A DNA stretch of 45,971 bases from NCBI RefSeq assembly GCF_016793705.1, contig NZ_JAEULO010000024.1, positions 1-45,971 of the forward strand. Direction: 5' to 3'. Shown piece by piece: positions 248 through 15,787 of this stretch. Both the position numbers and the translations under genes were made by a program. The notes below the pieces were generated by a model. It searched no databases. It saw nothing but the letters and a program-made list of their open reading frames with translations, and was not told the origin of the DNA. Origin of the DNA: Tabrizicola sp. Lineage in GTDB: Bacteria > Pseudomonadota > Alphaproteobacteria > Rhodobacterales > Rhodobacteraceae. Positions within the stretch are counted from its first letter, which is position 1; each line of letters begins with the position of its first letter.

Positions 248-1282
248 TCATGGTCCAGGATCCTCCCTCCTCGATGAACTTCTTGACATTGCAGAGCTGG
301 CTTTCTTGCGCTTGAAGCGCTCGGTCATCCTTGCGTGCGCTTCGGATGTCCCGTCGTGCCAGGTGCCAAACCACTTGTCCAAGGGCAACGCTCCGTCGGC
401 ATAATTCACCTCGAAGTACTTGTGGTGGAGGTAATGCGCATAGGCGTGGGTGTCGATGGCAGTCTCTTTCCCGGTCTCGATCTTGTCGAAGCCGACATGG
501 CCGATCACGGCCCCGGTCCCCCCGATCTGCAGGTGGTAGAGAACCAGAAGTGGATGTGACGGAAGCAAAAGGTGGATCAGCGTATCTGACCAGTAAAGCA
601 GATGCTCGACCGGATGCATCGAAAGAGAGGACCAGGGCGAGGGGTTGACCGAATTGTGGTGGACGGAATGGACCATGCGGTACAGCGCGGGGAGGTGGAT
701 CAAGCGGTGGATCGCGAAGAAATGCACCTCGTGAACGAGGGGGAGCGCGAGTGCGAAGACTGTCAGCCAGACGGGATGGTCGCCAAACGCTGCCCAAGGC
801 CCGATCCCGTTCGCCCAAGCCCAGAGAATCAGCACTTCATACGCGGTCCAGATCGGCAGGCCCGACATGAAGGTGCGAAGGGTATTGTCCAGGTTCTGGC
901 TCTTGAACCAGAAGACATCGGATTTGCGGTCAGCCGGGAAACTGCCGTTGTACTTGAACCGCAAGTCCTGCCGACGATGGACATAGAGCCGCAGTTCGAG
1001 CGCGCCGAACATCAAGAGCACGACCGCCGAATTGCGGATGAACAGGAAGGCGATCCAGCCAGGCGCCAGGTTTTGCATCGTCTCCCGCGAAGGTGTGGCC
1101 CAGGCCCAGAGTGCGACGGCAAGGGCGAAGAAGACCGCGTTCCACGGCAGGAAATACCCCGGCAGCCATTTCAGCACCCGTGCGGCGTTCCACGGCCAAT
1201 CCAGCAGCGGGCCTACCTGAAGGGGTTCGTGTGGTGCCCATTGGCCGCGTTTGTCCCTGGTTCCAAAGCGATGCTCGTCCAT
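248..1282 (-). CDS. Sterol desaturase / fatty acid hydroxylase family membrane oxygenase (copy A)
   Basis: Protein of 344 residues, an integral-membrane member of the fatty acid hydroxylase superfamily, whose members use a histidine-coordinated di-iron centre and O2 to hydroxylate or desaturate a substrate. The three histidine boxes are intact: HRLIH (about 192-196), HSVHH (205-209) and HYLHH (283-287), plus HEVHF just before the first. Several hydrophobic segments lie around residues 40-65, 75-100 and 170-190. It is the diverged twin of the gene at 2494-3519, sharing the N-terminal FGTRDKRG block. I chose the ATG at 1282 to match the twin. A GTG at 1294 overlaps the stop of the upstream LacI gene (GTGA), so translational coupling is likely. 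The C-terminal tail is rich in Ser and Arg. The substrate is unknown; the context suggests a polyol rather than a lipid. Confidence 0.88.
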   Translation of the reverse strand: MDEHRFGTRDKRGQWAPHEPLQVGPLLDWPWNAARVLKWLPGYFLPWNAVFFALAVALWAWATPSRETMQNLAPGWIAFLFIRNSAVVLLMFGALELRLYVHRRQDLRFKYNGSFPADRKSDVFWFKSQNLDNTLRTFMSGLPIWTAYEVLILWAWANGIGPWAAFGDHPVWLTVFALALPLVHEVHFFAIHRLIHLPALYRMVHSVHHNSVNPSPWSSLSMHPVEHLLYWSDTLIHLLLPSHPLLVLYHLQIGGTGAVIGHVGFDKIETGKETAIDTHAYAHYLHHKYFEVNYADGALPLDKWFGTWHDGTSEAHARMTERFKRKKASSAMSRSSSRREDPGP

Positions 1283-1290
1283 TTCTGCTC

Positions 1291-2319
1291 TCACACATTT
1301 TCGGGGGTGTAGATCTCGAACCCCAGGGTGACGTTCAGGGCACCAACCTCCGTTCCTGCCTTCTTGGCCCGGACCATGGTCGCTACCGCCTCGCGGGCGA
1401 AGGTTTCCATGGGGTGCGAGATGACGAAGTTCAGTGTGCCGTCGATCAAGGCTGCGCGGGTGGCGTCGAACAGTTCGTACCCGACGGCGACGAAGTCATT
1501 GCGGCGCTGGTGGGCTCGCAAGGCGGCGAGCGCCCCTGTGATGCCGCCACCCGAAATGAACAGGCCGCAGAGGTCCGGGTGTTCGGCCAGCATTTCTTCC
1601 GTGATCTCACGAGCGACGTTGGACGATTCATAGGTGGCCCTGGGCTCCAGCAGCGTGAACGCGCTGTTATGCTCACGCATGTAGGACCGAAAGCCGCTTT
1701 CGTTCAGTTCCTGGTTGCGGTAGCGGTGGTTGCCCACAAGAATGCCGATCTTGCCCGGCTCACGGACCATTCGGTCGAACGCCCAGGCGGCAGTGCGTCC
1801 GACTTTCCAGTTGTCCAGCCCGACGAAGCAAACGTTGCCGCGCGCCGAGAGGGGCGCGATCAGCCCGGTGACAGGGGTGCCAGAGGCCAGAACCGAATCG
1901 ATGGCGTCCGATATCATCGGGTGTTCGGCCGCGACCAGCGCAACCGAATCGCAGTTGGTGCCCAGAGCAATCAGCCGCGTTGCAATCGTCTCGGGCGAAA
2001 GGTCATCGAGAAACTCCAGCTTGAGGTCGACCTTTCCGTCGGGCGACTGTTCGGCGGCACGCCGAAGGGCATCGCCGAGATTGCGGTAGAAGGTACGGTT
2101 TCCCTGGTGCAGGAGCACCCCGATCCGATAGGATCCTCGGCTGGATTTCACTGAATTTTCAATGGTCCGGATGCCATAGAAGCCGATTTCCTCTGCGGCC
2201 TGAAGCACCCTTTCCCGCGTCGCCTGACGCACCGAATCCGCTTCCGAGATCACCCGGTTGACGGTTGCGACGGAGACGCCGGCGGCGGCGGCCAAGTCTG
2301 GAATCGTAGGTCGCTTCAC
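1291..2319 (-). CDS. LacI-family transcriptional regulator of the oxygenase/ABC island
   Basis: Regulator of 342 residues. An N-terminal LacI helix-turn-helix (about 4-50, with the SVATVNRVI recognition segment) precedes a periplasmic-binding-protein-like ligand domain (about 60-340). The start is the GTG at 2319: a perfect AGGAGG (complement of 2327-2332) lies 7 nt upstream, whereas upstream in-frame ATGs lack such a site and would add residues before the HTH. The gene is divergent from the 2494 oxygenase and co-transcribed with oxygenase A. A perfect 20-bp palindrome lies between the two start points, so it probably represses both directions until a sugar or polyol ligand binds. The ligand is not identifiable from sequence; inositol-like compounds are the contextual guess. 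Confidence 0.9.
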   Translation of the reverse strand: MKRPTIPDLAAAAGVSVATVNRVISEADSVRQATRERVLQAAEEIGFYGIRTIENSVKSSRGSYRIGVLLHQGNRTFYRNLGDALRRAAEQSPDGKVDLKLEFLDDLSPETIATRLIALGTNCDSVALVAAEHPMISDAIDSVLASGTPVTGLIAPLSARGNVCFVGLDNWKVGRTAAWAFDRMVREPGKIGILVGNHRYRNQELNESGFRSYMREHNSAFTLLEPRATYESSNVAREITEEMLAEHPDLCGLFISGGGITGALAALRAHQRRNDFVAVGYELFDATRAALIDGTLNFVISHPMETFAREAVATMVRAKKAGTEVGALNVTLGFEIYTPENV

Positions 2320-2405
2320 GCCCAATCCTCCTGTCATTTCGTATCTTCGGCAAACCAGATAGATACTAAATGATATGAAATTCTCCCAGATCCCCAAAAT
2401 AGATT

Positions 2406-2425
2406 GATTTGATCCGGATCAAATC
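2406..2425. promoter_or_regulatory. Perfect 20-bp palindromic operator candidate
   Basis: GATTTGATCCGGATCAAATC is a perfect palindrome with the CG centre typical of LacI-family operators. It lies 87 bp upstream of the regulator start (2319) and 68 bp upstream of the oxygenase B start (2494), where one site could control both divergent promoters. The surrounding DNA (2340-2405) is AT-rich, as expected of promoters. That the adjacent LacI protein binds it is inference. Confidence 0.75.
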
Positions 2426-2493
2426 GTCAAGAAGCCGTTCAACAACGGTGGTGCAAAATGTCGCACCCCCGGCGCCGAGGGGAGGCCGGTTCA

Positions 2494-3519
2494 ATGGACG
2501 ACATGCAATTTGGAACCCGCGACAAGCGCGGCAACTGGGCGCCGAATGAGCCGCTGGAAATTGCACCCTTCTGGCTGGGCAAGTGGAACAAGATGGGGCG
2601 GTGGATCATCGCCTACCTCTGGCCGCACAACACGATCTTCATGGCGGTGACTGTCGCCTACTGGTACTTCGTGCTGCCAGACTGGGACGTCATGAGGACT
2701 TTCTCCTGGGGCTGGATCCTGTGGATCCATGTTGTGAACAGCGCAGGCGTCTTCCTGTTCTTCGGTTCGGTCGAGCTGATCTACTACGTCAAGCGCAAGC
2801 AGGGGACGCGGTTCAAGTACAACCACAAGTTCCCGTCCGAGAACCCGTCGGACATCTTCTGGTTCAAGAGCCAGAACATCGACAACTTCCTGCGCAGCTT
2901 CCTCATTACGCTGCCGATCTGGACGCTGATCGAGGTGTTCACGCTCTGGTGCTTCGCCAACGGCTTCTCGAACGCGATTGATCCGTCCGAGCACTGGCTC
3001 TGGCTCGCGGTCCTGATCCTCTTGGCGCCCGCGATCCATGAAGTGCATTTCTACTGCGGCCATTGGCTGATCCATCAACCGCCGCTCTACAAGTGGATCC
3101 ATTCGATCCACCACAACTCGATCAACCCGAGCCCCTGGTCCTCGCTCAGCATGCATCCGGTCGAAGGGGCGTTCTTCATCTCCGAGATGATGTGGCACCT
3201 GCTGCTGCCCTCGGCGCCCTTCGTCGCGATGTTCCAGCTGACCAGCACCGCCTATGGCGCGATCGTCGGCCACATCGGCTTCGACAAGCTGGAACTGACC
3301 GAAGGCCAGGCGATGGATAGCCACGCCTACACCCATTACCTGCACCACAAGTACTTCGAGGTGAACTACGGCGGCGACGGGCTCATCCCGCTCGATAAGT
3401 GGTTTGGCACCTGGCACGACGGCACGAAAGAGGCCGACGAGCAGATGAAGGAACGTTTCCGCAAGAAGAAGGAACGTCTGGCCCGCAAGGCCGGCAACGG
3501 GGCGACCCCGGCCGAATAG
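2494..3519 (+). CDS. Sterol desaturase / fatty acid hydroxylase family membrane oxygenase (copy B)
   Basis: Protein of 341 residues, paralogous to copy A over its whole length. Histidine boxes are HWLIH (190-194), HSIHH (203-207) and HYLHH (281-285), preceded by HEVHF; these are the expected ligands of a membrane di-iron centre. Hydrophobic segments lie at about 36-60, 75-98, 135-150 and 168-185. The start is the ATG at 2494, preceded by GGGGAGG with 8 nt spacing; an upstream ATG at 2458 would add an unlikely Arg-rich leader. It is the first gene of the long rightward operon, directly ahead of a sugar-binding protein. The pairing with a Rieske ferredoxin at 11811 suggests that this is the terminal oxygenase of a catabolic step. 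Desaturase activity on sterols is not implied. Confidence 0.9.
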   Translation: MDDMQFGTRDKRGNWAPNEPLEIAPFWLGKWNKMGRWIIAYLWPHNTIFMAVTVAYWYFVLPDWDVMRTFSWGWILWIHVVNSAGVFLFFGSVELIYYVKRKQGTRFKYNHKFPSENPSDIFWFKSQNIDNFLRSFLITLPIWTLIEVFTLWCFANGFSNAIDPSEHWLWLAVLILLAPAIHEVHFYCGHWLIHQPPLYKWIHSIHHNSINPSPWSSLSMHPVEGAFFISEMMWHLLLPSAPFVAMFQLTSTAYGAIVGHIGFDKLELTEGQAMDSHAYTHYLHHKYFEVNYGGDGLIPLDKWFGTWHDGTKEADEQMKERFRKKKERLARKAGNGATPAE

Positions 3520-3580
3520 GTCCCGGGCAAGCCGATCGAACGGCCGCGGGAAGCGGTCATCATCTGGGAGGAGACCCAAA

Positions 3581-4549
3581 ATGAAGCTTGGAAAGATTCT
3601 CGCCGCGACGGCGATGCTGACCCTGGTGGCCGGGATGGCCAGCGCCGAAGGTGCAAAGATCTTCGTCATCGGCGGCAAGCCCGACGACCCGTTCTGGTCG
3701 CGCGTCAAGCTTGGCGCCGAACATGCTGGCAAAGTCGCAGAAGCCCAAGGGGGCTCGGTCACCTGGCTTGGTCCGCAGAACTACGACAACCTCGGTCCCG
3801 ACGCTGCCGAACTGATCCGTCAGGCGATCGACCAGGGCGCGGACGCCATCGTCGGCCCCGACTGGGTTCCGGAAGCGATGGACCCGGCCTTCGAAGCTGT
3901 CGTCGCCGCGGGCATTCCGCTGGTCATCTACAACGCCGGTGGTCTTGAGGCGGCGGACCGTCTGGGCGCGATGAACTATGTCGGCGCGGTCGACTACAAA
4001 TCGGGCTATGCCGGCGGCGAGTACCTCGGCAAGGCGGGTCACAAGAACGGCGCTTGCGTGAACACTCTGCCGGGCGCGGCCAACATTGAAGCCTTCTGCA
4101 ACGGCTTCAATGACGGCCTGGCTGCGGCTGGCGGCACCGGTTCGGTCCTGCAATTGCCCGCAACTGCCTTCGGCGATGCGACGGCCGTTGCCCAGGCCGT
4201 CCGCGCGCACCTGCTGGAAAACCCGACGATCGACGCGATGTTCGCCATCGGCGACCAGGATACGAACGCGACGATCAGCGGCATCCAGCAGGCGGGCAAG
4301 ACCGGCGCGGTCCATGTCTGCGGGATGAACTTCAACGACTCGATCCTCGCGAACATCCAGGCTGGCAGCCAGGCCTGCGCCATCGACCAGCAGGGCTATC
4401 AGCAGGGCTTCTTCGCCGTGTCGATCCTGAACAACTTCGTCAACTACGGCGTGACCATCCCGACCCGGGAAATCCTGACCGGACCGGGCGTCATCGATGC
4501 CTCGAACGTCGAGCTGGTGATCGAAGGCGTGAAACTCGGCGCCCGCTAA
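3581..4549 (+). CDS. Sugar ABC transporter periplasmic substrate-binding protein (first copy)
   Basis: Protein of 322 residues with a clear Sec signal peptide (MKLGKILAAT..., cleavage after ASA near residue 22) and a type 1 periplasmic-binding fold of the RbsB/Peripla_BP_4 family. The motif IDASNV occurs near the C-terminus and is shared with the second binding protein at 6761. It should capture a sugar or polyol in the periplasm for the permeases that follow. The start has GGAGGAG 8 nt upstream. It sits 61 nt after oxygenase B and is followed by a strong stem-loop before the permease gene, an arrangement that usually raises binding-protein output. Ribose, fructose and inositol transporters all use this family, so specificity cannot be assigned. 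Confidence 0.92.
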   Translation: MKLGKILAATAMLTLVAGMASAEGAKIFVIGGKPDDPFWSRVKLGAEHAGKVAEAQGGSVTWLGPQNYDNLGPDAAELIRQAIDQGADAIVGPDWVPEAMDPAFEAVVAAGIPLVIYNAGGLEAADRLGAMNYVGAVDYKSGYAGGEYLGKAGHKNGACVNTLPGAANIEAFCNGFNDGLAAAGGTGSVLQLPATAFGDATAVAQAVRAHLLENPTIDAMFAIGDQDTNATISGIQQAGKTGAVHVCGMNFNDSILANIQAGSQACAIDQQGYQQGFFAVSILNNFVNYGVTIPTREILTGPGVIDASNVELVIEGVKLGAR

Positions 4550-4562
4550 GGCGAACCCAAAA

Positions 4563-4590
4563 TGCCCGCCGGCCAGACCGTCGGCGGGCA
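4563..4590 (+). terminator. Intercistronic stem-loop after first binding protein
   Basis: A perfect 9-bp stem (TGCCCGCCG paired with CGGCGGGCA) around a 10-nt loop, 13 nt after the binding-protein stop. No T-run follows, so it is more likely an mRNA-stabilising or attenuating element than a full terminator. Confidence 0.6.
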
Positions 4591-4650
4591 GACCTTTGCT
4601 GGCAGCTGCACATTGCTCGCCAAAGCCCCCTAGCAACAGGAACCACGCAG

Positions 4651-5670
4651 ATGACACAGAACAGGGAGGGTCGCTCGTCCGGGATGTCGTTTGGCAGTCT
4701 TGCCAGACGGCCCGAGGCTGGTTCGCTCGTCGGGCTCGTTCTTGTCTACACATTCTTCGCCATCATGGGCGGTGCCGTCTTCGTCGGCGCACCGGGCTGG
4801 TCCAGCTGGCTGAATATCGCGGCAGAGGTCGGCATCGTTGCCTTGCCTGTCGGCCTTCTGATGATCGCGGGCGAGCTTGACATCTCGGTCGGGTCGGTCA
4901 TCCCGGCCTCGCAGATGACGGCCGCCATCATCTCGGGCCATTTTGGCCTGCCGATCTTGCTGGGAATTGGCTGCGGCCTGGGCGTCGGGCTTCTGGTCGG
5001 CTACATCAACGGTCTTCTGGTCACCCGGACCACGATTCCGTCGCTCATCATCACCATCGGCACGATGTTCGGCGTCATGGGCCTGACGCTGGGTTTCGCC
5101 GTGCTGATCGCCGGATCGACCAGCGTGTTCCTGGTGCCCACCCCGCTGACCAAGCTTGTCCTGGGCACGTTCCTGGGCGGGATGTTCAACGTCTCGATCT
5201 TCTGGTGGATCGCCTTCGCGATCGTCATCTACTTCCTCTTGCATTTCTCGCCGCTCGGGAACTGGATCTTCGCCCTTGGCGGCGACCGTGACAGCGCCCG
5301 CAACGCGGGCATCCCGACCAGGGGTCTGACCATCTGGCTTTACATGCTGTCGGGCTTTGCCGCAGCCTTCGTCGGCATCCTGCAGCTGATGACCTATCAG
5401 AACGCGCAGGTCGCCACCGGCCAGTCCTTCATCTTCAACTCGATCATGTGCGTCGTGATCGGCGGGGTCATCCTGACCGGCGGATCCGGCTCGGTCATCG
5501 GCATCGTCATCGGCACCGCGACCTTCGCAATCGTGAACCAGGGCATCTTCTTCTCGGGCCTCGATCCGAACATCGGCTCGATCATCATCGGCGCGCTTCT
5601 GCTTGCGGCGGTCCTGTCGAACGACGGCTTCCGCGCGCTCGCCCTCAAGTACTCGACGAAGAAAGGCTGA
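4651..5670 (+). CDS. RbsC-type sugar ABC transporter permease (first)
   Basis: Inner-membrane permease of 339 residues from the BPD_transp_2 (RbsC/LivH) family, with about eight to ten hydrophobic segments. The family signature GELDISVGS lies near residues 71-79, following the RRPEAGS N-terminal motif that all three permeases of this cluster share. It forms the membrane channel for a sugar imported with a periplasmic binding protein. The start at 4651 has AGGA about 9 nt upstream; an internal ATG at 4684 is possible. The next permease starts 7 nt downstream, so the two are surely co-translated and could form a heterodimer. No fused ATPase domain is present. Confidence 0.92.
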   Translation: MTQNREGRSSGMSFGSLARRPEAGSLVGLVLVYTFFAIMGGAVFVGAPGWSSWLNIAAEVGIVALPVGLLMIAGELDISVGSVIPASQMTAAIISGHFGLPILLGIGCGLGVGLLVGYINGLLVTRTTIPSLIITIGTMFGVMGLTLGFAVLIAGSTSVFLVPTPLTKLVLGTFLGGMFNVSIFWWIAFAIVIYFLLHFSPLGNWIFALGGDRDSARNAGIPTRGLTIWLYMLSGFAAAFVGILQLMTYQNAQVATGQSFIFNSIMCVVIGGVILTGGSGSVIGIVIGTATFAIVNQGIFFSGLDPNIGSIIIGALLLAAVLSNDGFRALALKYSTKKG

Positions 5671-5677
5671 GCCGCGC

Positions 5678-6682
5678 ATGTTGAGCACATTCGCCCCCTT
5701 CCTGCGCCGCCCCGAGGCTGCCTCGATCATCAGCCTTGTCGGGATCGTCGCCTTCTACGTCATCATCGGCGGCGTGGACCTTCGCACGCTCTTCGGAGCA
5801 GCCAGCTGGGTGAACTTCGCCGCCAACCTTGGCATCGTGGCAATCCCGGTCGGCATCCTGATGATCGGGGGCCAGATCGACATTTCCATCGGGGCGATGA
5901 TCCCCGCCGGGTCGATGACCATCGCCATCCTGTCCGGCTACTACGGCCTGCCGATCGAAGTCGGGATCATCGGGACGCTCGCGCTTGGCGCTGTGGTCGG
6001 CCTGGTGAACGGCCTCTTGACGGTGCGCACGACCGTGCCCTCGCTGATCGTGACGCTGGGGACGCTGGTCGTCATGCAGGGCGTCGTGCTTGCGGGCGCC
6101 AATCTTCTGACAGGGGCGGCCAGCGTCAAGCTTGAGGCTCCTGCCTGGGCAAAAGCCGCCTTCGGCAGCCTGATCGGCCCCAGCCACCAGGTCATCATCT
6201 TCTGGTGGATCGTCATTGCCCTGATCTTCGCCTTTGCCATTCACAAGACGCGCTTTGGCAACTGGGTCTACGCGATGGGCGGCGATCTGGTTTCGGCGCG
6301 GAACGCAGGTGTGCCGACCGCGCGGCTGACCATCATCCTGTTCATGCTGTCGGCAATCAGCGCGGCCTTCGTCGGGATGTGCGGCGCGATCCAGTTTAAC
6401 TCCGCCCAGGTGTCGGGCGGTATGGGCTACATCTTCAACACCATCGTCAGCATCGTTGTCGGCGGTGTGCTGCTGACCGGCGGCTTCGGGTCGGTGATCG
6501 GGATCTTCATCGGCACGATCACCTTCGCGATTGTCAGCCAAGGCATCTACTTCACCGATATCGACCGCAACTGGTCGAACCTGATCATCGGCGTGACGCT
6601 GCTTCTCGCCGTCGCGATGAACGAAAGCTTCCGGAAATTCGCGCTGCGGGCCGGGCCGAAGAAGAAGGCCGCCAGCAGCTGA
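5678..6682 (+). CDS. RbsC-type sugar ABC transporter permease (second)
   Basis: Permease of 334 residues, paralogous to the preceding gene, with the signature GGQIDISIG in place of GELDISVG and a similar hydrophobic profile. The ATG at 5678 is the natural start: it begins MLSTFAPFLRRPEAAS, aligning with the RRPEA motif of the other two permeases, whereas the frame also extends upstream into the previous gene. A short basic tail (GPKKKAASS) ends the protein. Two adjacent, non-identical RbsC subunits suggest a heterodimeric pore; a homodimeric pore for each is the alternative. Confidence 0.92.
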   Translation: MLSTFAPFLRRPEAASIISLVGIVAFYVIIGGVDLRTLFGAASWVNFAANLGIVAIPVGILMIGGQIDISIGAMIPAGSMTIAILSGYYGLPIEVGIIGTLALGAVVGLVNGLLTVRTTVPSLIVTLGTLVVMQGVVLAGANLLTGAASVKLEAPAWAKAAFGSLIGPSHQVIIFWWIVIALIFAFAIHKTRFGNWVYAMGGDLVSARNAGVPTARLTIILFMLSAISAAFVGMCGAIQFNSAQVSGGMGYIFNTIVSIVVGGVLLTGGFGSVIGIFIGTITFAIVSQGIYFTDIDRNWSNLIIGVTLLLAVAMNESFRKFALRAGPKKKAASS

Positions 6683-6687
6683 GAGAT

Positions 6688-7717: not shown

Positions 7718-7731
7718 CCCTTGCCACCGCT

Positions 7732-7755
7732 CCCGGCCGGGCTCATCCGGCCGGG
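7732..7755 (+). terminator. Intercistronic stem-loop after second binding protein
   Basis: A perfect 9-bp GC stem (CCCGGCCGG paired with CCGGCCGGG) with a 6-nt loop, 14 nt after the stop codon. It has the same position relative to its gene as the stem-loop after the first binding protein. No T-run follows. Confidence 0.6.
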
Positions 7756-7819
7756 GCGATCTTCTGGTGCAGGCCCAAATAGCCAAGCACCCCAAAGAAA
7801 TCTCGGGGGAGATGGACCG

Positions 7820-8899
7820 ATGACAGATAGCAAGACAACAGTACCTGGTGCATCGGCAGGCGGAGGCTTCTCTCTGCAGAACATCTTTCGCCGCCCGGAA
7901 GCGGGCGCAGCCGCGGGTTTCCTTATCATCCTGATCTTCTTCGGATATTTCGGCGTCCAGAACAACTTTCTGACGGCGCTCGGGACATCGACCTGGCTCA
8001 ACTTCGCCTCCAAGGTCGGCATCATCGCCATTCCGGTAGGCTTCCTGATGATTGCCGGTGAGATGGACATCTCGGTCGGCGCGCTGATCCCGGCGGGCGG
8101 CATCGTGCTGGCCATGGCAAGCGAGCTTTACGGGCTGAACATCTGGCTTTCGCTACTTCTCAGCCTCGGGATTGCGGGGGCCATTGGTTACGTCAACGGC
8201 ATGCTGGTCACGCGGACCAGGGTGCCCTCGCTGATCGTGACTCTCGCCACCCTCTTCGTCGTGGCGGGTCTGAACATCTTCGTCTCGAAGAAACTGGCCG
8301 GAACCACGCAGCACAGCGTTCAGGACGCGGGCCCCGTGTCCGAGTTCCTGCTGGGCGACTACCATACGCTGCAGTTCGGTGCGGACGATGCGCCCTTCAT
8401 CATCTTCCAAAGCCTGCAAAGCTCGTTCTTCATCTGGATCGTCTTTGCAATCATCTGCTTCTTCGTCCTGCACCTGTCGCCCTGGGGCAACTGGATCGCG
8501 GCGATGGGCGGCGACCAGCAAAGCGCCCGCAACGCAGGGATCCCGACGAACCGGCTGAAGATCGCACTCTTCATGCTGTCGGCAATGGCGTCGGCGCTGG
8601 TCGGGATGACCGAGGCCGTCCTGGCCAACACCGCCAGCACGACGACCCAGTTCGGCATGATCTTCAACTCGATCATCTGCGTCGTGGTGGGTGGCGTCCT
8701 TCTGACCGGAGGATTTGGAACGGTGACGGGCATCGTCTTCGGGACCCTGACCTTCGGCATCGTCTTCCAGGGGATCAACTTCACCACCTTCGACAAGGAC
8801 CTGAACCTTCTGTTCATCGGCGCGCTTCTGCTGATCGCAGTCCTGATGAACGAAACCTTCCGTAAAATGGCGACCAACTGGTCGTCCTCCAAGAAATGA
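7820..8899 (+). CDS. RbsC-type sugar ABC transporter permease (third)
   Basis: Permease of 359 residues, the third RbsC paralogue of the cluster, with GEMDISVGA near residue 84 and the RRPEAGA motif after a longer Gly/Ser/Ala-rich cytoplasmic N-terminus. An insertion relative to the other two, around residues 165-200, may be a periplasmic loop. The start at 7820 has GGGGGAGA 7 nt upstream; the frame stays open 99 nt further upstream without a good start. The stop overlaps or abuts the ATPase gene. It probably pairs as a homodimer with the second binding protein. Confidence 0.92.
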   Translation: MTDSKTTVPGASAGGGFSLQNIFRRPEAGAAAGFLIILIFFGYFGVQNNFLTALGTSTWLNFASKVGIIAIPVGFLMIAGEMDISVGALIPAGGIVLAMASELYGLNIWLSLLLSLGIAGAIGYVNGMLVTRTRVPSLIVTLATLFVVAGLNIFVSKKLAGTTQHSVQDAGPVSEFLLGDYHTLQFGADDAPFIIFQSLQSSFFIWIVFAIICFFVLHLSPWGNWIAAMGGDQQSARNAGIPTNRLKIALFMLSAMASALVGMTEAVLANTASTTTQFGMIFNSIICVVVGGVLLTGGFGTVTGIVFGTLTFGIVFQGINFTTFDKDLNLLFIGALLLIAVLMNETFRKMATNWSSSKK

Positions 8900-8907
8900 G
8901 GCCCGAC

Positions 8908-9732: not shown

Positions 9733-9740
9733 GCCTCCCT

Positions 9741-9804: not shown

Positions 9805-9839
9805 GCAAACCAACCGATACCGAACCCGAGGCGGGACAA

Positions 9840-10844
9840 ATGACACAGAGAATTGCTGTAATCGGCGCAGGCCTGATGGGGGCCGACCACGCCCGTATCG
9901 TGGCCGAGGATCTGCCGGGCGCAACCCTGCAGGTGGTCTGCGACATGGATCAGGCCCGTGCACGAGATGTTGCCGATGCGCTTGGCGCAGCGGATGTAGG
10001 CAATGACCCCGAAGCGGTCATCGCGCGTGCCGATGTCGATGCCGTCATCATCGCGAGCCCGGACTTCACCCATGCACCGCTCAGCCTCGCCTGCATCCGC
10101 GCGGGCAAGCCGGTGCTTTGCGAAAAGCCCTTGTCGCAGAAGCCCGCCGAATGCATCGCCGTGATGGATGCCGAAATGGCCGCTGGCCGCCGCTTTGTGC
10201 AGGTCGGCTTCATGCGCCGTTTCGATCAGTCCTATGTCGAGATGAAGGCCGCGCTGACCGGCGGCAAGCTGGGCCGCGCGCTGATGATGCACAACTTCCA
10301 CCGCAATGTGGAAACCCCGGCGTCCGACTTCACTGGCGCCATGGCGATCACCAATTCGGCCCCGCATGAATTCGACGTGGTCCGCCATGTCCTCGGCTGC
10401 GAATATGCTTCGATCTCGGCCTATCAACCCAGGCGGTCGGATGCCCGCGTCGCTCCGGTGGTCATGGTGCTTGAAACCACCGACAACCAACTCGTCACCA
10501 TCGAGATCAACAACAACGCCGCCTACGGCTATGACGTCCGCGCCGAGCTGGTGGGCGAGGCCGGGTCGATTGCCATGACCAACGTGGCCTACACCCGCAC
10601 TGACATGAAGCTGTCCTCTGCCACGGTCTATGACGCCGATTGGCGTGGTCGCTATCACGAGGCCTATGTCCGCCAGAACCGGGCGTTCATGCACTTTGTC
10701 AACACTGGCGAATTCACCGCGATCGGCTCCAGCGCCTGGGATGGCTATGCCGCTGCCAAGGTTGCTGAAACCGGCGCCAAGGCCCTGGTCGCCGGAACCA
10801 AACTCGCGGTCGAGATGATCGACAAACCGGAGTTCTACAAATGA
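9840..10844 (+). CDS. Gfo/Idh/MocA family dehydrogenase, inositol 2-dehydrogenase-like
   Basis: Oxidoreductase of 334 residues. An N-terminal Rossmann fold has GAGLMG (about 9-14), followed by the family motif CEKPLS (Lys about 96) and the C-terminal Gfo/Idh/MocA domain. HEFDVVRH (about 176-183) supplies the Asp and His expected of an inositol dehydrogenase catalytic triad. It should oxidise a ring or chain hydroxyl with NAD(P)+. The start at 9840 follows GAGGCGGGACAA. The stop overlaps the next start by 4 nt (ATGA), so it is translationally coupled to the TIM-barrel protein. It is the first of three such dehydrogenases here. MocA-like function is as plausible as IolG-like function. Confidence 0.88.
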   Translation: MTQRIAVIGAGLMGADHARIVAEDLPGATLQVVCDMDQARARDVADALGAADVGNDPEAVIARADVDAVIIASPDFTHAPLSLACIRAGKPVLCEKPLSQKPAECIAVMDAEMAAGRRFVQVGFMRRFDQSYVEMKAALTGGKLGRALMMHNFHRNVETPASDFTGAMAITNSAPHEFDVVRHVLGCEYASISAYQPRRSDARVAPVVMVLETTDNQLVTIEINNNAAYGYDVRAELVGEAGSIAMTNVAYTRTDMKLSSATVYDADWRGRYHEAYVRQNRAFMHFVNTGEFTAIGSSAWDGYAAAKVAETGAKALVAGTKLAVEMIDKPEFYK

Positions 10845-11800
10845 AACTGGGGTTCGTATCCGACAGCCTTGGCGGAATGCCCTTCGACACCATGCTTGAC
10901 CACGCCGCCCGCATGGGCGTGTCCGGCGTCGAGGTGAACACCTGCGGCTGGTCCACCGCCCCGCATTTCGACCTTGCGGCGATGACCCGCGACGCGGGCG
11001 CCCGAAAGGCGTTCCTGAAGGCCTTCGCCGACCGAGGGCTGGAGGTGATCGCACTGAACGCCAACGGCAACCCGCTGCACCCGACCGACCCGAAGCAGGG
11101 ACAGGGACTGAAGGACACCATCCGCGTCGCCGGCGATCTGGGCATCAAGACCATCGTCACCATGTCCGGCCTGCCCGCCGGGCGCGACGGCGACCTGATG
11201 CCGAACTGGGTCGTTTCGTCCTGGCCGCCCGAAACGCAGGAAATCCTGCACTACCAGTGGCAGGAAAAGCTGATCCCGTTCTGGACCGAAATCGCCAGCC
11301 TCTGCCACGAGCATGGCGTGGAGAAGATCGCGCTGGAACTGCACGGCAACCAGGTCGTCTATAACGTCCCCAGCCTCTTCAAGCTGCGCGAAGCGGTCGG
11401 CCCGGTCATCGGCGCCAACCTAGACCCCAGCCACCTGATGTGGATGGGCGCCGACCCGCTCGTCGCCGCTGAACGTCTTGGCTCGGCCGTCTATCACGTC
11501 CATGCCAAGGACACCTTCCTGAACGCCCCCGTCCAGGCCACCACCTCGCTTCTGGAAAACGGCAGCCTGATGGACATCCCGGCCCGGTCCTGGTCCTACA
11601 TCACCCTGGGCTTCGGCCATGGCGAAGAATGGTGGCGGCAATTCTGCTACCGCTTGAAGATGGGCGGCTACGACGGCTGGCTGTCGATCGAGCATGAAGA
11701 CGTGCTTCTCAACTCGCTGGAAGGGCTGGAGAAATCCGTGGCGCTTCTGCAGGGCGTGATGCCGAAGGCCCCCGCCGACTACAAACCACAAGCAATCTGA
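10841..11800 (+). CDS. Sugar phosphate isomerase/epimerase-like TIM barrel protein
   Basis: Protein of 319 residues from the xylose isomerase-like / AP endonuclease 2 fold, the family of IolE, IolI and many sugar epimerases. Likely divalent-metal ligands are Glu in ALELH (about 166), Asp and His in NLDPSH (195, 198), His in YHVHAKD (about 221) and Glu in LSIEHED (284). It overlaps the preceding dehydrogenase by 4 nt, suggesting that it acts on the keto product of that enzyme by isomerisation, epimerisation or dehydration. It is longer than IolI and near IolE in size, but without clear identity to either. Confidence 0.85.
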   Translation: MKLGFVSDSLGGMPFDTMLDHAARMGVSGVEVNTCGWSTAPHFDLAAMTRDAGARKAFLKAFADRGLEVIALNANGNPLHPTDPKQGQGLKDTIRVAGDLGIKTIVTMSGLPAGRDGDLMPNWVVSSWPPETQEILHYQWQEKLIPFWTEIASLCHEHGVEKIALELHGNQVVYNVPSLFKLREAVGPVIGANLDPSHLMWMGADPLVAAERLGSAVYHVHAKDTFLNAPVQATTSLLENGSLMDIPARSWSYITLGFGHGEEWWRQFCYRLKMGGYDGWLSIEHEDVLLNSLEGLEKSVALLQGVMPKAPADYKPQAI

Positions 11801-11810
11801 GAGACGAGTC

Positions 11811-12119
11811 ATGGCCTGGATCGACGCCTGTTCCACCGACGACATTCCCAGCGAAGACGTGATCCGCTTCGATCACGGATCCCGCACCTTCATCATCGTC
11901 CGCGATCACGAGGACGGCTACTGGTGCGCCGACGGACTTTGCACGCATGAGGATATCCACCTCTGCGATGGAATGGTCGTCGAATGCACCATCGAATGCC
12001 CAAAGCATTCCTCGATCTTCAACGTCACCAATGGCGAGGTCGAAACCCCGCCCGCCTGCAACAACCTGCGCACCTACCCGACCAAGGTCGAGGGCGGGCG
12101 CGTCCTGATCGAGATCTGA
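11811..12119 (+). CDS. MocE-type Rieske 2Fe-2S ferredoxin
   Basis: Soluble protein of 102 residues with a complete Rieske cluster motif: Cys44-Thr-His46 and Cys63-Pro-Lys-His66, about 16 residues between the pairs. It belongs to the small Rieske ferredoxins that pass electrons to oxygenases; MocE of rhizopine catabolism is the named relative. There is no separate oxygenase alpha subunit nearby, so the likely electron acceptors are the two membrane di-iron proteins at 248 and 2494. No ferredoxin reductase gene (MocF-like) is visible in the window, so that partner must be encoded elsewhere. It sits tightly between two TIM-barrel isomerase genes. Confidence 0.9.
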   Translation: MAWIDACSTDDIPSEDVIRFDHGSRTFIIVRDHEDGYWCADGLCTHEDIHLCDGMVVECTIECPKHSSIFNVTNGEVETPPACNNLRTYPTKVEGGRVLIEI

Positions 12120-12120
12120 C

Positions 12121-12894
12121 ATGGCCTTCCAACTTGCGGCCTGCGCCGAAATGCTGTGGCGGGACCGGCCGATCTCGTGGCGGGCCAGCCGCCTGAAGGA
12201 GATGGGTTTCGGCGTCGGCCTCTGGAACTGGCCGGACTGGGACATCGCAGCGCTGGAACGGACAGGGGCCACCTTTACCATCATGAACGGCTATCTTCAG
12301 GGCCGCCTGACCGATGCGGAAGGCGCGGACGCGCTGGTGAAGTCGGCCCGTGAGACCGCGCAGGTCGGCAAGCGCCTTGGCGTCCACCGGCTGAACCTGC
12401 ACGGCACGGCTCTCGGCGATTTCGGCCTGCCAATTCCGCATCTGACCACGTTCTCTCCGGGAATGGAGCTGCGTGCCCGCGATACGCTGCATCGGATATG
12501 CGATCTGGCCGAGCAGGAAGGGGTAACGTTCACGCTGGAGAACCTGAACTTGCGCGAACATCCGGGCTGCCCTTTCAACTCGACCGCGTCGGTGCTCTCG
12601 CTGGTTTCTGCGGTGAACCGGCCGCAACTTCGCATCAACCTCGACCTCTACCACACCCAAATTGGCGAGGGCGACGTGATCCGTTGGGCAGAGGCCTGTC
12701 TGCCGTGGATCGGCGAGGTTCAGGTCGCCGACAACCCGGGCCGCTGCGAACCCGGCACGGGCGAGATGAACTGGCCGATGATCGCCCGGGCGCTGGACGC
12801 GATGGGCTACGCCGGACCTGTCGGAATGGAAGCCTTCGCCAAAGGCGACGAAGTGGCCGCGCTGGACGCCTTCCGCGCTGCCTTCACACTTTAA
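12121..12894 (+). CDS. Hydroxypyruvate isomerase-like TIM barrel protein
   Basis: Protein of 257 residues matching the hydroxypyruvate isomerase (Hyi/OtnI) family in length and motifs: TLENLN with Glu140, NLDLYHTQIGEGD with Asp175 and His178, QVADNPGR and GMEAF with Glu237. Glu140 and Glu237 correspond to the paired catalytic glutamates of the family. The enzyme should interconvert a small aldose/ketose or 2-oxo acid such as hydroxypyruvate and tartronate semialdehyde, or act on 2-oxo-tetronate. The gene starts 1 nt after the ferredoxin stop. No glyoxylate carboligase or tartronate semialdehyde reductase neighbour is present, so the real substrate may differ. Confidence 0.85.
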   Translation: MAFQLAACAEMLWRDRPISWRASRLKEMGFGVGLWNWPDWDIAALERTGATFTIMNGYLQGRLTDAEGADALVKSARETAQVGKRLGVHRLNLHGTALGDFGLPIPHLTTFSPGMELRARDTLHRICDLAEQEGVTFTLENLNLREHPGCPFNSTASVLSLVSAVNRPQLRINLDLYHTQIGEGDVIRWAEACLPWIGEVQVADNPGRCEPGTGEMNWPMIARALDAMGYAGPVGMEAFAKGDEVAALDAFRAAFTL

Positions 12895-12906
12895 GGGAAG
12901 ACCGAA

Positions 12907-13731
12907 ATGGGCATGTATCACAACCGGCCGCACGTTCAGGACCTGCGCGCGATGAAGAAGCGCGGCGAGAAGATCTCGATGCTCTATGTCTCGACCCATG
13001 ACGAGGCTGCGGCGGCTGCGGCGGCAGGCATCCACATGCTGTCGATCGAAGGCAAGGTCTTCGACGCCCAGATGCGTGAGGCGGCGGGCGACTGTTTCGT
13101 CCAGGTGGGCCTGCCCTATGGCGGCTGGGGCTCGTTCCAGGGCCGACCGCTCGCAACTGCGGAAGACTACCTGCGCGCGGCCTTTCACTATGCCGCTCTT
13201 GGTGGCGACGCCTACTATTGCTCGGCCTCCTACGACATCCAGAAGACGCTGGCCGACAACCACATTCCGGTCGTCGGCCACATCGGTCTGATCCCAAGTT
13301 ACATCAGCTGGACCGGCTGGCGTGCGGTCGGCAAATCGGCCTCCGAGGCCGAGGCGCTTTGGAAGCACACGCAGATGCTGGAAAAGATCGGCGTCTTCGG
13401 CGCCGAGCTTGAGGTGGTGCCCGACCGGGTGGCCAAGTACCTGTCCGAGAACTCCTCCGTGCTGATGCTGGGGATGGGCGCGGGCAAATATGCCGACGCA
13501 CAGTATCTCTTTACCGAGGATGTCTGCGGCTATGGCGTCAACCACAAGCCGCGCCATGGCAAGGTCTATGCCGAACTTGGCCCCAAGCTGAAAGCGATCC
13601 AGGACGAGCGCATCGCCGCCTTCAAGGCCTTCAAGGCCGATGTGGACAAGGGTGGCTATCCGGGTCCCGAACACACCGTTCCGATCAAGGACGAGGAATT
13701 CGACGCCTTCCTGAAGTCCGTGAAAGGCTGA
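12907..13731 (+). CDS. PanB-like (ketopantoate hydroxymethyltransferase family) protein, divergent
   Basis: Protein of 274 residues recognisable as a PanB homologue: KRGEKISML, GHIGLIP (His125), ELEVVP (Glu169, matching the PanB catalytic base), GMGAGKYADAQ and the C-terminal YPGPEH. PanB moves a hydroxymethyl group from methylene-tetrahydrofolate to a 2-oxo acid. Here several active-site positions differ. By eye the first Mg-binding Asp is Glu48, the second is Gly68, the Lys/Glu pair of VKIEGG becomes Tyr/Ser (YYCSAS), and about 20 residues between the metal ligands are missing. It is therefore unlikely to make pantothenate. Embedded in a sugar/polyol operon, it may do an aldol or retro-aldol step, perhaps with one-carbon release. 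Confidence 0.82.
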   Translation: MGMYHNRPHVQDLRAMKKRGEKISMLYVSTHDEAAAAAAAGIHMLSIEGKVFDAQMREAAGDCFVQVGLPYGGWGSFQGRPLATAEDYLRAAFHYAALGGDAYYCSASYDIQKTLADNHIPVVGHIGLIPSYISWTGWRAVGKSASEAEALWKHTQMLEKIGVFGAELEVVPDRVAKYLSENSSVLMLGMGAGKYADAQYLFTEDVCGYGVNHKPRHGKVYAELGPKLKAIQDERIAAFKAFKADVDKGGYPGPEHTVPIKDEEFDAFLKSVKG

Positions 13732-13735
13732 TCCG

Positions 13736-14764
13736 ATGCTGAGGATCGGGGTCGTCGGATACGGCACGGGCGGACAGCATTTCCACACACCCTTCATCGC
13801 GGCAGCCGAAGGTTGCACGCTGGCCGGTATCGTGGCGCGTGCCCCGGAAACGGTGGCCAAAGCACACGCCGATTGGCCCGATACCCCGATCTTCCCGAGT
13901 CTTGCGGCGATGATCGAGGCCCGCGTTTGCGACGCCGTCACCATCACCACTCCTCCGCAAACCCGGCGCGAGCTGGTGCTGGAGGCAATCGCGGCCGGAA
14001 TGCATGTCATCGCCGACAAGCCCTTCGCGCCGAACTACGACGGCGCGATGGAGCTTGACCGCGCCGCCAAGGCCAAGGGCATTACCCTCGGCGTCTACCA
14101 GAACCGCCGCTTCGACTCCGACCTGCAGACGCTGAAGAAGATCATCGACGACGGGCGCCTGGGAAAGATCTGGCGCATCGAAAGCCGGATGGACCAGGAT
14201 GGCGCGCATACCGTGGAACAGGGCCCCACCGGCGGCCTTCTTCGCGATCTCGGCAGCCATGTGGTCGACCAGATGGTGTACCTCCTCGGCCCGGTCGCAG
14301 TGGTCGACGCGCAAATGGACTACGCCCAGATGCCGGGCGGGCTGACCGATGTCAGCTTCACCATCACGCTTCGCCATGAAAACGGTGCGCACAGCCATCT
14401 GTCAGCCTCCAAGCTGAACCACATCGATGCGCGCGAATTGCGTGCCTATGGCGACAAGGGCGCCTACGTGTCCTCGACCATTGACGTGCAGGCGCAGGAC
14501 ATCTTCGCCGGCAAGCGCCCGGTGCACGACCTATCCGCATGGGGGTATGAGCCCGAGGCGAACTGGGGCACGCTGTTCACCTCGGTGGGCCGTGAAACCA
14601 TCCCGTCGGAGCAGGGTCGCTACCACGATTACTACGAGGCTTTCGCAAGGGCCGTCCGTGAACGCACCCCGCCGCCCGTCACCGCCGAAACCGGCGCCCG
14701 CACGCTCGCCATCCTCGACGCCGCGCGGCAAAGCGCGACCGAGGGGCGATCCATCGCTCTCTAG
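13736..14764 (+). CDS. Gfo/Idh/MocA family oxidoreductase, scyllo-inositol dehydrogenase (IolW/YdgJ)-like
   Basis: Oxidoreductase of 342 residues starting MLRIGVVGYGTGG, a Rossmann glycine motif. It carries DKPFAP (Lys about 91) instead of the usual EKP, and GGLLRDLGSHVVDQ, which resembles the IolW/YdgJ-type scyllo-inositol dehydrogenases. The product should be an NAD(P)-dependent dehydrogenase for a cyclic or open-chain sugar. It begins 4 nt after the PanB-like gene and is followed 27 nt later by the third dehydrogenase. The subgroup assignment rests on these motifs only. Confidence 0.85.
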   Translation: MLRIGVVGYGTGGQHFHTPFIAAAEGCTLAGIVARAPETVAKAHADWPDTPIFPSLAAMIEARVCDAVTITTPPQTRRELVLEAIAAGMHVIADKPFAPNYDGAMELDRAAKAKGITLGVYQNRRFDSDLQTLKKIIDDGRLGKIWRIESRMDQDGAHTVEQGPTGGLLRDLGSHVVDQMVYLLGPVAVVDAQMDYAQMPGGLTDVSFTITLRHENGAHSHLSASKLNHIDARELRAYGDKGAYVSSTIDVQAQDIFAGKRPVHDLSAWGYEPEANWGTLFTSVGRETIPSEQGRYHDYYEAFARAVRERTPPPVTAETGARTLAILDAARQSATEGRSIAL

Positions 14765-14791
14765 ATCTCCTTACGAAAAGGCTTCTTGTCC

Positions 14792-15787
14792 ATGCTCAAA
14801 GTCGGACTTCTCGGCGCAGGCCGCATTGCAGGCGTCCATGCCACCGCCATCACCTCCAATCCCGGCTCGACCCTCGTCGCCGTGTCGGACATCAACGCGG
14901 ACGCTGCCGCGAAGCTTGCTGCCCAGTATGGGGCAAAGGCACGGTCGACGGACGCGATCCTGAACGATCCGGCCATCGACGCGGTCCTGATCGCCACCTC
15001 GACAGACACCCATTCCGACCTGATCGAACGGGCAACCGGGGCCGGAAAGGCCGTCCTGTGCGAAAAGCCGGTCGACCTGTCGCTGGCCCGCGCGCAAGCC
15101 TGCCAGAAGGTTGCGGCCAAGAACGGCAAGCCGGTCATGATCGGATTCAACCGTCGCTTCGACCCGAACTTCGCGGCCCTGAAAGCTGCGCTGGACAAGG
15201 GCGAGATCGGCAGGCCGGAGCTTCTGTCGATCACTTCCTTTGACCCCGCTCCGCCGCCGGTCGCCTACATCAAGGTGTCGGGTGGCCTATTCCGCGACAT
15301 GATGATCCATGACTTCGACATGGCGAATTTCCTGATGGGCGCGGCGCCGGTCTCTGTCAGCGCCGTCGGCACATCCATTGTCGATCCAGCCATCGGCGCG
15401 GCAGGCGATGTGGATACTGCTGTCGTGACCCTCTCCTATGCCGACGGCCGCATCGCCGTGATCAAGAACTCGCGCCGGGCGGTCTACGGCTATGATCAGC
15501 GGGTCGAGCTTCTTGGGTCCGAAGGGCTCTTGCAGGCGCAAAACATGCTGGAAAACACCGTGGTCAAGTCTACCGCGGCGGGCGTTACAGGGGCTAAGCC
15601 GACCTATTTCTTCCTGGAACGCTACATGGCGGCCTATGCTGCCGAATGGGCGGCCTTTGTGGCGGCGGTGACTGAAGGAACTCCTGTACCCGTGACTTTG
15701 GGCGATGGCGTGGCGGCACTTGCCATGGCTGAAGCCGCGACCCGTTCAGCGAAAGCGGGCCAGCCCGTGAGCCTCTCCGATGTCTGA
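14792..15787 (+). CDS. iolG: Inositol 2-dehydrogenase-like Gfo/Idh/MocA protein
   Basis: Protein of 331 residues with GLLGAGRIAGVH at the N-terminus, CEKPVDLS (Lys92), GFNRRFDPNF and GGLFRDMMIHDFDMA, the set typical of alphaproteobacterial inositol 2-dehydrogenases (IolG/IdhA), which oxidise myo-inositol to scyllo-inosose with NAD+. The start is the ATG at 14792 with AAGG 9 nt upstream; a TTG two codons earlier is unlikely. Its 3' end overlaps by 8 nt a degenerate iolC start, the gene that would normally follow in an inositol operon. Of the three dehydrogenases here this is the most convincing IolG, although the substrate could be an inositol derivative. Confidence 0.85.
   Translation: MLKVGLLGAGRIAGVHATAITSNPGSTLVAVSDINADAAAKLAAQYGAKARSTDAILNDPAIDAVLIATSTDTHSDLIERATGAGKAVLCEKPVDLSLARAQACQKVAAKNGKPVMIGFNRRFDPNFAALKAALDKGEIGRPELLSITSFDPAPPPVAYIKVSGGLFRDMMIHDFDMANFLMGAAPVSVSAVGTSIVDPAIGAAGDVDTAVVTLSYADGRIAVIKNSRRAVYGYDQRVELLGSEGLLQAQNMLENTVVKSTAAGVTGAKPTYFFLERYMAAYAAEWAAFVAAVTEGTPVPVTLGDGVAALAMAEAATRSAKAGQPVSLSDV

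What the first reader, a model, noticed from the sequence alone, without database searches (positions are those of the whole stretch)
248..15787. Candidate oxygenase-driven polyol catabolic system: twin membrane di-iron oxygenases, a Rieske ferredoxin and three inositol-type dehydrogenases
One locus joins two histidine-box membrane oxygenases, a MocE-like Rieske ferredoxin, three Gfo/Idh/MocA dehydrogenases, two TIM-barrel isomerases, a PanB-like protein and ABC importers under one LacI regulator. Rhizopine catabolism (mocA, mocD/E/F) uses an oxygenase plus ferredoxin to demethylate an inositol derivative, so a methylated or otherwise substituted inositol or sugar is a reasonable substrate. 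Using fatty-acid-hydroxylase-type enzymes on an imported polyol, with a PanB-like partner, is a combination I do not recognise.
Basis: partly seen in the sequence, partly recalled or inferred. Interest (0 to 1): 0.82.

Follow-up and report, generated by a model that had tools for sequence, protein, structure and literature searches.

The report
Methyl-inositol demethylation operon with PanB relative
This stretch of bacterial DNA looks like a kit for importing a methylated plant sugar-alcohol, clipping off its methyl group with membrane iron enzymes and, probably, handing the toxic one-carbon leftover to folate through a repurposed vitamin-B5 enzyme whose real job is not known.

Summary
In detail: 248-15787 is a LacI-controlled import and catabolic locus with two PF04116 oxygenases, a MocE-type ferredoxin, three Gfo/Idh/MocA dehydrogenases, two TIM-barrel proteins and a PanB-like protein. 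The new point is the PanB-like gene. Its clade lacks three residues invariant in true PanB (87 of 87) but keeps a His and a Glu (87 of 87). It recurs beside two oxygenase families, and in 14 of 122 loci holding it (115 without repeats) sits with formyl-THF deformylase and/or FolD. The R. etli copy was reported not to work as PanB (PMC3082293, passages). Best reading: the oxygenases O-demethylate a methyl-inositol, the PanB-like enzyme passes the C1 unit to tetrahydrofolate, and the inositol enters the iol pathway. No activity is shown, and this genome lacks a clear PurU. A dedicated THF formaldehyde-capture enzyme would fill a recognised gap (PMC7073904).

The parts
248..1294 (-). oxA: second membrane di-iron oxygenase (PF04116), overlaps lacI by 4 bp
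   Evidence: Pfam 61.1 bits; included in the alignment whose 10 His columns are invariant; rhizobial LacI-oxygenase-MocE-MocF loci match it at 57-61%
1291..2397 (-). LacI-family regulator (more likely start ATG 20 codons in, about 2337)
   Evidence: PF00356 and PF13407; internal ATG
2406..2425 (.). Perfect 20-bp palindrome GATTTGATCCGGATCAAATC, candidate LacI operator
   Evidence: 1 match in window, 0 in 100 shuffles; 16-bp core found only here in the genome; versions with 2 mismatches in the core at the same place in L052 and L056; most of the 71 intergenic stretches show no such palindrome
2458..3519 (+). oxB: main membrane di-iron oxygenase (PF04116); likely start codon 13, about 2494
   Evidence: 63.6 bits; H202, H206, H215, H218, H219, H272, H293, H296, H297, H320 invariant in 40 sequences
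3581..4549 (+). sugar-type periplasmic binding protein 1
   Evidence: PF13407; nearest solved sequence 4ru1, a CUT2 monosaccharide binder
4651..5670 (+). ABC permease 1
   Evidence: PF02653 135.1 bits
5603..6682 (+). ABC permease 2 (likely start about 5678)
   Evidence: PF02653 133.6 bits
6761..7717 (+). sugar-type periplasmic binding protein 2
   Evidence: PF13407; 4ru1 best
7721..8899 (+). ABC permease 3 (likely start about 7820)
   Evidence: PF02653 138.9 bits
8896..9732 (+). ABC ATPase
   Evidence: PF00005 105.5 bits
9786..10844 (+). Gfo1: dehydrogenase nearest to inositol 2-/D-chiro-inositol dehydrogenases (likely start about 9840)
   Evidence: NF052679 266.7 bits, below its cut-off of 540; best solved sequences 3ec7 (putative dehydrogenase) and 3mz0 (inositol 2-/D-chiro-inositol dehydrogenase)
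10841..11800 (+). IolE-like TIM-barrel protein
   Evidence: PF01261 101.6 bits; TIGR04379 34.7 bits, far below cut-off 290
11811..12119 (+). MocE-family Rieske [2Fe-2S] ferredoxin
   Evidence: TIGR02377 139.9 bits, cut-off 136.15
12121..12894 (+). hydroxypyruvate-isomerase-like TIM barrel (possible inosose isomerase role, inferred)
   Evidence: PF01261 100 bits; TIGR03234 107.7 bits, below cut-off 353.45
12907..13731 (+). PanB-like protein, proposed one-carbon transfer enzyme
   Evidence: Fails PanB cut-offs; three PanB-invariant residues lost in 87/87 of its clade, His and Glu kept 87/87; AF2 model mean pLDDT 90.2, first 28 PDB fold matches all PanB chains
13736..14764 (+). Gfo2: Gfo/Idh/MocA dehydrogenase, specificity unknown
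   Evidence: PF01408, PF02894
14786..15787 (+). Gfo3: IolG, inositol 2-dehydrogenase
   Evidence: TIGR04380 432.9 bits, cut-off 355; 4hkt inositol 2-dehydrogenase E 4.8e-98

Best explanation
The locus is an inducible operon for an O-methylated inositol (for example D-pinitol or ononitol). The ABC system imports it. One or both PF04116 membrane di-iron oxygenases, fed electrons by the MocE ferredoxin and a reductase encoded elsewhere, hydroxylate the methoxy carbon to a hemiacetal or formaldehyde. The PanB-like protein, a PanB descendant without the keto-acid/metal residues, moves that C1 unit onto tetrahydrofolate to give 5,10-methylene-THF. FolD then makes formyl-THF, which PurU (in some relatives) or Fhs run backwards (here) converts to formate. 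The freed inositol is oxidised by IolG/Gfo1, isomerised by a TIM barrel where needed, and enters the iol pathway. Shown: gene content, conservation, residue changes, FolD/PurU/iol linkage in relatives. Inferred: demethylation, the PanB-like reaction, the use of Fhs, the substrate.
For: Same-type operon with PurU-IolC-IolD-IolB after Gfo3 (L258); in L056, also of this type, PurU 23 bp after the PanB-like match, then an IolC match. Desaturase-MocE-PanB-like beside iolG-C-D-E-B on two plasmids. PurU and/or FolD in 14 of 122 loci with PanB-like (115 distinct), in eight gene arrangements by my count; of 144 other loci only L236 has one, and it was fetched for its Fhs gene. PanB-like genes lie beside PF00487 or PF04116 oxygenases: of 40 PanB-like hits fetched anew from the genus, 35 have an oxygenase within 8 kb and 36 the ferredoxin within 3 kb. 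R. etli PanB-like on p42e, beside desaturase-MocE-FAD reductase: reported not to make pantothenate and not to complement panB (passages of PMC3082293). Spontaneous formaldehyde+THF is reported too slow, and PanB was already considered a possible promiscuous catalyst (passages of PMC7073904).
Against: No activity, substrate or phenotype data. None of the genus neighbourhoods shows PurU or FolD, and this genome gave no full-length PurU hit; the folate link rests on relatives. 14 of 122 is a minority, and several of the 14 are close relatives. Two genus PanB-likes (L228, L229) and several class-wide ones have no recognised oxygenase nearby. No MocF-type reductase in the operon; the nearest in the genome is 42% identical on contig C57. 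Deleting panB and ltaE in E. coli did not change formaldehyde-dependent growth (PMC7073904), so PanB itself is not known to do this step. I had no THF-binding residues of PanB to test for retention.
Confidence: 0.6

Rival explanations
1. Same demethylation operon, but the PanB-like protein acts on the carbon skeleton (a retro-aldol or hydrolytic step on a ring-opened or keto-inositol intermediate), with formaldehyde left to general detoxification.
For: After the PanB chains, fold matches are to PEP-mutase/isocitrate-lyase-type C-C and C-P bond enzymes; PanB-like often sits among IolG and TIM-barrel genes. The 1-in-9 rate of FolD/PurU neighbours is modest.
Against: In L089 and L093 the mapped neighbours are oxygenase, MocE and FolD/PurU, with no Gfo or TIM-barrel match next to PanB-like. 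The FolD/PurU link is not explained.
Confidence: 0.17
2. The substrate is an O-methyl sugar, methyl glycoside or branched sugar, not an inositol; Gfo and TIM proteins epimerise and oxidise a sugar.
For: Binding proteins are nearest to a monosaccharide CUT2 binder; Gfo2 and the two TIM barrels have no specific assignment.
Against: Gfo3 passes the IolG cut-off, Gfo1 is nearest inositol/D-chiro-inositol dehydrogenases, and a same-type operon holds iolC-D-B.
Confidence: 0.15
3. The oxygenases modify lipids or the envelope, and their nearness to a sugar operon is incidental.
For: PF04116 is named for fatty-acid hydroxylases.
Against: Of 80 nearest homologues, 75 have a LacI gene and 72 the MocE ferredoxin. 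Lipid genes were not searched for by name.
Confidence: 0.04

Closest known systems
Rhizopine catabolism, mocDEF + mocABC (Bahar 1998 seen only as a citation, not held; described in passages of PMC10107442)
   Same: Oxygenase plus MocE ferredoxin, Gfo dehydrogenase, link to inositol catabolism, O-methyl inositol-type substrate (oxygenase role and MocA type partly recalled)
   Different: Clusters called mocDEF-like in rhizobia carry a PF00487-type desaturase, the window enzymes are PF04116; no amino-sugar gene matched in the window; the moc units quoted (mocDEF, mocR, mocBA, mocC) name no PanB-like or folate gene; regulator LacI, not MocR
PanB, ketopantoate hydroxymethyltransferase
   Same: Same fold, one His and one Glu kept
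   Different: Three residues invariant in true PanB lost in 87/87; fails PanB models; separate clade at 100/100 on a long branch; true PanB present elsewhere in the genome, C19; R. etli copy reported not to complement panB (PMC3082293)
Fae / Gfa formaldehyde-activating enzymes (as described in passages of PMC8879981)
   Same: Would speed capture of formaldehyde by a C1 carrier
   Different: Fae uses tetrahydromethanopterin, Gfa glutathione; the proposed enzyme uses tetrahydrofolate and a PanB fold
iol myo-inositol operon
   Same: IolG present; IolC-D-B or IolG-C-D-E-B adjoin relatives
   Different: IolD-type hits of this genome lie elsewhere, C64 (68%) and C57 (48%); the operon adds oxygenases, ferredoxin and PanB-like

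Membership tests
MocDEF rhizopine oxygenase | MocE-family ferredoxin | tested here: met
   TIGR02377 139.9 vs cut-off 136.15
MocDEF rhizopine oxygenase | PF00487-type (MocD) oxygenase | tested here: not met
   Window enzymes are PF04116 only; no PF00487 hit on this contig. That MocD itself is of this type is recalled and inferred
MocDEF rhizopine oxygenase | MocF-type ferredoxin reductase in the operon | tested here: not met
   None in 248-15787; nearest in the genome 42% on C57; 16584-17870 scores best to a sulfide:quinone reductase model, below cut-off
PanB (EC 2.1.2.11) | Passes PanB curated models | tested here: not met
   82 vs 207.55 and 107.5 vs 272 bits
PanB (EC 2.1.2.11) | Residues at E. 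coli D84, K112, E114 (metal/keto-acid roles recalled) | tested here: not met
   Absent in 87 of 87 PanB-like, present in 14 of 14 true PanB
PanB (EC 2.1.2.11) | Residues at E. coli H136 and E181 | tested here: met
   87 of 87
PanB (EC 2.1.2.11) | PanB fold | tested here: met
   AF2 pLDDT 90.2; 28 best PDB matches are PanB chains
PanB (EC 2.1.2.11) | Supports pantothenate synthesis | not testable with these tools
   For a relative: R. etli RHE_PE00443 reported not to (PMC3082293)
IolG inositol 2-dehydrogenase (Gfo3) | Passes IolG equivalog model | tested here: met
   TIGR04380 432.9 vs 355
Membrane di-iron oxygenase (FA_hydroxylase superfamily) | Conserved histidine cluster | tested here: met
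   10 His invariant in 40 sequences; no solved fold match, so geometry untested
THF-linked formaldehyde-capture enzyme (proposed) | Formation of methylene-THF | not testable with these tools
   Needs an enzyme assay

The most novel reading that the evidence does not exclude
The PanB-like proteins are an uncharacterised enzyme family of Alphaproteobacteria that transfers formaldehyde, or a hydroxymethyl group from freshly hydroxylated methyl ethers, directly to tetrahydrofolate: a folate counterpart of Fae, partnered with several kinds of oxygenase (PF04116, PF00487, and perhaps Rieske and PhyH types).
Probability: 0.45. Interest if true: 0.9.

Novelty: new variant of a known kind. Interest (0 to 1): 0.74.

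Why it matters
O-methyl-inositols such as pinitol are common in legumes (recalled). My paper searches listed nothing on genes for their bacterial breakdown (held no paper with all terms) and nothing naming a PanB relative in a mocDEF or methyl-inositol context (one search listed 20 of 401). If the PanB-like enzyme loads formaldehyde onto THF, it fills a recognised gap: spontaneous condensation is reported too slow to serve as an effective route (PMC7073904, abstract and passages), and the review passages I saw describe a spontaneous THF route beside enzyme-assisted H4MPT and glutathione routes (PMC8879981). It would also correct the annotation of many proteins now called 3-methyl-2-oxobutanoate hydroxymethyltransferase (for example), give a role to the second, non-complementing panB of R. 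etli p42e (PMC3082293), and offer a part for synthetic C1 assimilation.

Tried and rejected
Rejected: rhizopine as the substrate (no amino-sugar family among the 16 genes; PF00487 absent from the contig). Rejected: the neighbouring reductase at 16584-17870 as MocF. Weak: class III formaldehyde dehydrogenase as the general replacement in PanB-less loci; found in L107 only among the 80 and in L120, the plasmid locus it was taken from. Contexts against a fixed partnership: the oxygenase of L143 has no ferredoxin match, and the Alisedimentitalea PanB-like lies by a sterol desaturase-type gene without an annotated ferredoxin. No help: fold search with oxB (0 PDB matches with E up to 0.001); PDB sequence search with oxB (none); paper searches (several lists capped). 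The Fisher value (11/41 vs 0/39) ignores relatedness and contig cuts, so I do not lean on it. The oxygenase labels in the tree are by nearest match within 8 kb: loci holding both types (L004, L041, L049, L211) are labelled arbitrarily, L127 is the window itself in a short locus and so reads 'none', and the tree program warns of long branches meeting. Rows dropped: PanB-like sequences under 240 aa were left out of the tree (87 of 89 used); 14 true PanBs were taken as outgroup; 40 of the 47 PanB-like rows were fetched anew, 7 being already held; the 40 class-wide regions were taken from the top by score; structure alignments used 37 PanB-like and 40 oxygenase rows chosen by me. The same place was held under two or three locus numbers in five cases.
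Full report
What is there. The window is contig C62:1-45971 of a 3.84-Mb draft genome; oxB's closest named homologues are from Rhodobacterales. From 248 to 15787 lie a lacI-oxA pair on the minus strand and, divergently, oxB, an ABC import system with two binding proteins and three permeases, Gfo1, an IolE-like TIM barrel, a MocE-family ferredoxin, a second TIM barrel, a PanB-like protein, Gfo2 and Gfo3. From gfo1 to gfo3 the gaps are 1 to 21 bp or a 4-bp overlap. Gfo3 passes the IolG model and the ferredoxin passes the MocE model; the PanB-like protein passes Pfam's broad family but fails both PanB models. Between lacI and oxB is a perfect 20-bp palindrome whose 16-bp core occurs nowhere else in the genome, with near-copies (2 mismatches) at the same place in L052 and L056: a candidate operator, though most of the 71 intergenic stretches compared show no such palindrome.

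Conservation. I scanned genome contigs for oxB and kept the best 80 of 142 relatives, then mapped window and reference genes on them by tblastn. A LacI gene is present in 75 of 80, the ferredoxin in 72, PanB-like in 41. The 39 without PanB-like include loci cut by a contig end and a rhizobial group (LacI, oxygenase, MocE, MocF, often a TIM barrel). A second oxygenase is found in 9 of 80. I did not search lipid genes by name.

The PanB-like family. In 32 genomes of the genus, PF02548 rows fall into two groups: 31 of 32 genomes show one true PanB at 349-365 bits (G002, 80% complete, only a partial row of 195.5; G004 an extra row of 238.8), and PanB-like copies at 88-131 bits, none to five per genome. 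The window's genome has a true PanB on C19 and PanB-like genes on C62, C4 and C39, the last matching only in part. In an alignment of 87 PanB-like and 14 true PanB sequences, the positions of E. coli D84, K112 and E114 (numbering and roles recalled) are D, K, E in 14 of 14 true PanBs and in none of 87 PanB-likes; the positions of H136 and E181 are kept in all. A first set of 49 gave 48 of 49 at these positions, one row apparently being a true PanB. Of 23 further class-wide sequences, one keeps D at the D84 position; K112 and E114 are lost and H136/E181 kept in all 23. The tree puts the 87 on one side of a branch at 100/100. The label of the nearest oxygenase family is not one clade: PF00487 needs 7 changes (at least 6 forced by well-supported branches) and all four labels together 14 (least possible 3); some of these come from loci that hold both types. 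The AF2 model (mean pLDDT 90.2) matches PanB structures first, E 1.5e-17, with 28 PanB chains on top.

Tight partnership. Of 40 PanB-like hits in loci fetched anew from the genus (40 of the 47 PanB-like rows; the other 7 were already held), 36 have the ferredoxin within 3 kb and 35 an oxygenase within 8 kb. Three of the five without an oxygenase have the ferredoxin and lie on loci that end nearby; two (L228, L229) have neither. Class-wide (385 genomes), 40 further stretches were fetched from the top of the list. Some PanB-like genes there sit by matches to the PF00487 references at 32-70% identity (L239, L260-264, L266, L277; only L262's was checked against Pfam), some near a Rieske-type oxygenase (L262, L263, weakly L273) or a PhyH-type enzyme (L275, L276, weakly L274, L277); several show no recognised oxygenase, and 18 of the 20 stretches held homologues that match true PanB better.

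One-carbon link. On a Neotabrizicola plasmid the order is MocE-TIM-FAD oxidoreductase-PanB-like-FolD-PurU-IolG. Over all loci held, PurU and/or FolD occur in 14 of 122 loci with PanB-like, 115 after removing repeats, in eight arrangements by my count: MocF-PurU divergent from the operon (L057-059, L063, L064); after IolG-MocF (L065, L071, L075); and L089, L093, L056, L123, L234, L258 each on its own. In L056 the PurU match starts 23 bp from the PanB-like match. Among 144 loci without PanB-like the only hit was L236, which I had fetched because it carries Fhs. Against: no genus neighbourhood shows PurU or FolD, and this genome gave no full-length PurU hit (genome 94.5% complete), though it has Fhs at 903 bits next to FolD-type hits, which could release formate.

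Inositol link. L258 is the window-type operon extended: permease-binding protein-permease-ATPase-Gfo1-IolE-like-ferredoxin-TIM-PanB-like-Gfo2-Gfo3-PurU-IolC-IolD-IolB; PurU, IolC and IolG there pass their models. Aestuarium and Marivivens plasmids carry desaturase-MocE-PanB-like with iolG-C-D-E-B. This makes an inositol product likely. Gfo1's nearest solved relatives include inositol/D-chiro-inositol dehydrogenases, so D-pinitol, a methyl ether of D-chiro-inositol (recalled), is a good first guess; I give that exact substrate about 0.25.

Published evidence. PMC3082293 (abstract and passages) studied RHE_PE00443 on R. etli p42e: a panB mutant stays auxotrophic although this gene is present, and a constitutively expressed copy does not complement (their data not shown); 5 of 12 invariant active-site residues are conserved and the metal-binding domain was not detected. 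One search shows the only PanB match found on p42e (one place) lying downstream of LacI | desaturase-MocE-FAD oxidoreductase; I take it to be the same gene (locus tags not matched by a tool), and it has the same residue changes. PMC3538637 (passages) notes FixV-type LacI genes beside mocDEF in rhizobia and proposes an inositol derivative as the signal; a term search of its main text for panB and ketopantoate gave none. PMC7073904 (abstract and passages) reports that spontaneous formaldehyde-THF condensation would allow only a doubling time over three weeks, and that E. coli PanB was considered a possible promiscuous catalyst and deleted (with LtaE) without change of growth phenotype. That counts against PanB itself, less against a specialised descendant.

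Mechanism and confidence. Shown: gene content, operon spacing, conservation, residue loss and retention, folate and iol neighbours in relatives. Inferred: O-demethylation (by analogy to the rhizopine model), C1 transfer to THF by the PanB-like protein, and the substrate. Demethylation of an inositol ether about 0.75; PanB-like as C1 transfer to folate about 0.55-0.6.

Novelty. The parts belong to known families; the PanB-derived C1 step tied to membrane di-iron demethylases is a new variant and, if the activity is confirmed, a new enzyme function. Ten paper searches listed no description of it; several lists were capped, I judged by listings and a few passages, and most subscription journals are not held.

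Noticed in passing
window 16584-21104 (-); L207 from 4.7 kb on: An RND efflux pump and an SQR-like flavoprotein lie next to the operon; close homologues (86% and 91%) also lie beside the desaturase-MocE-PanB-like operon of another genus member.
   Followed up: partly
L276:5828-6643; L275; L262, L263, L273: PanB-like genes beside PhyH-type or Rieske-type oxygenases, suggesting partnership with further demethylase classes.
   Followed up: partly
L261-L263 and L266, L274, L277: Small genomes (about 1.4-1.6 Mb) keep PanB-like genes, one of them (G197) four copies.
   Followed up: no
L120:12590-13717 and L107: S-(hydroxymethyl)glutathione dehydrogenase downstream of a PanB-less oxygenase-MocE-MocF locus, a possible alternative formaldehyde route.
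   Followed up: partly
G000:C39:102608-103018: The third PanB-like gene of this genome matches only in part and its open frame is 206 aa; described only.
   Followed up: no
L240-L257: An intermediate class of PanB homologues (about 125-163 bits to the PanB-like profile; 41-47% to true PanB), some with PhyH-type genes in the same stretch.
   Followed up: no
window 2458-3519, model m1117278b8a56: The oxygenase model (pLDDT 87.4) has no PDB fold match with E up to 0.001.
   Followed up: partly
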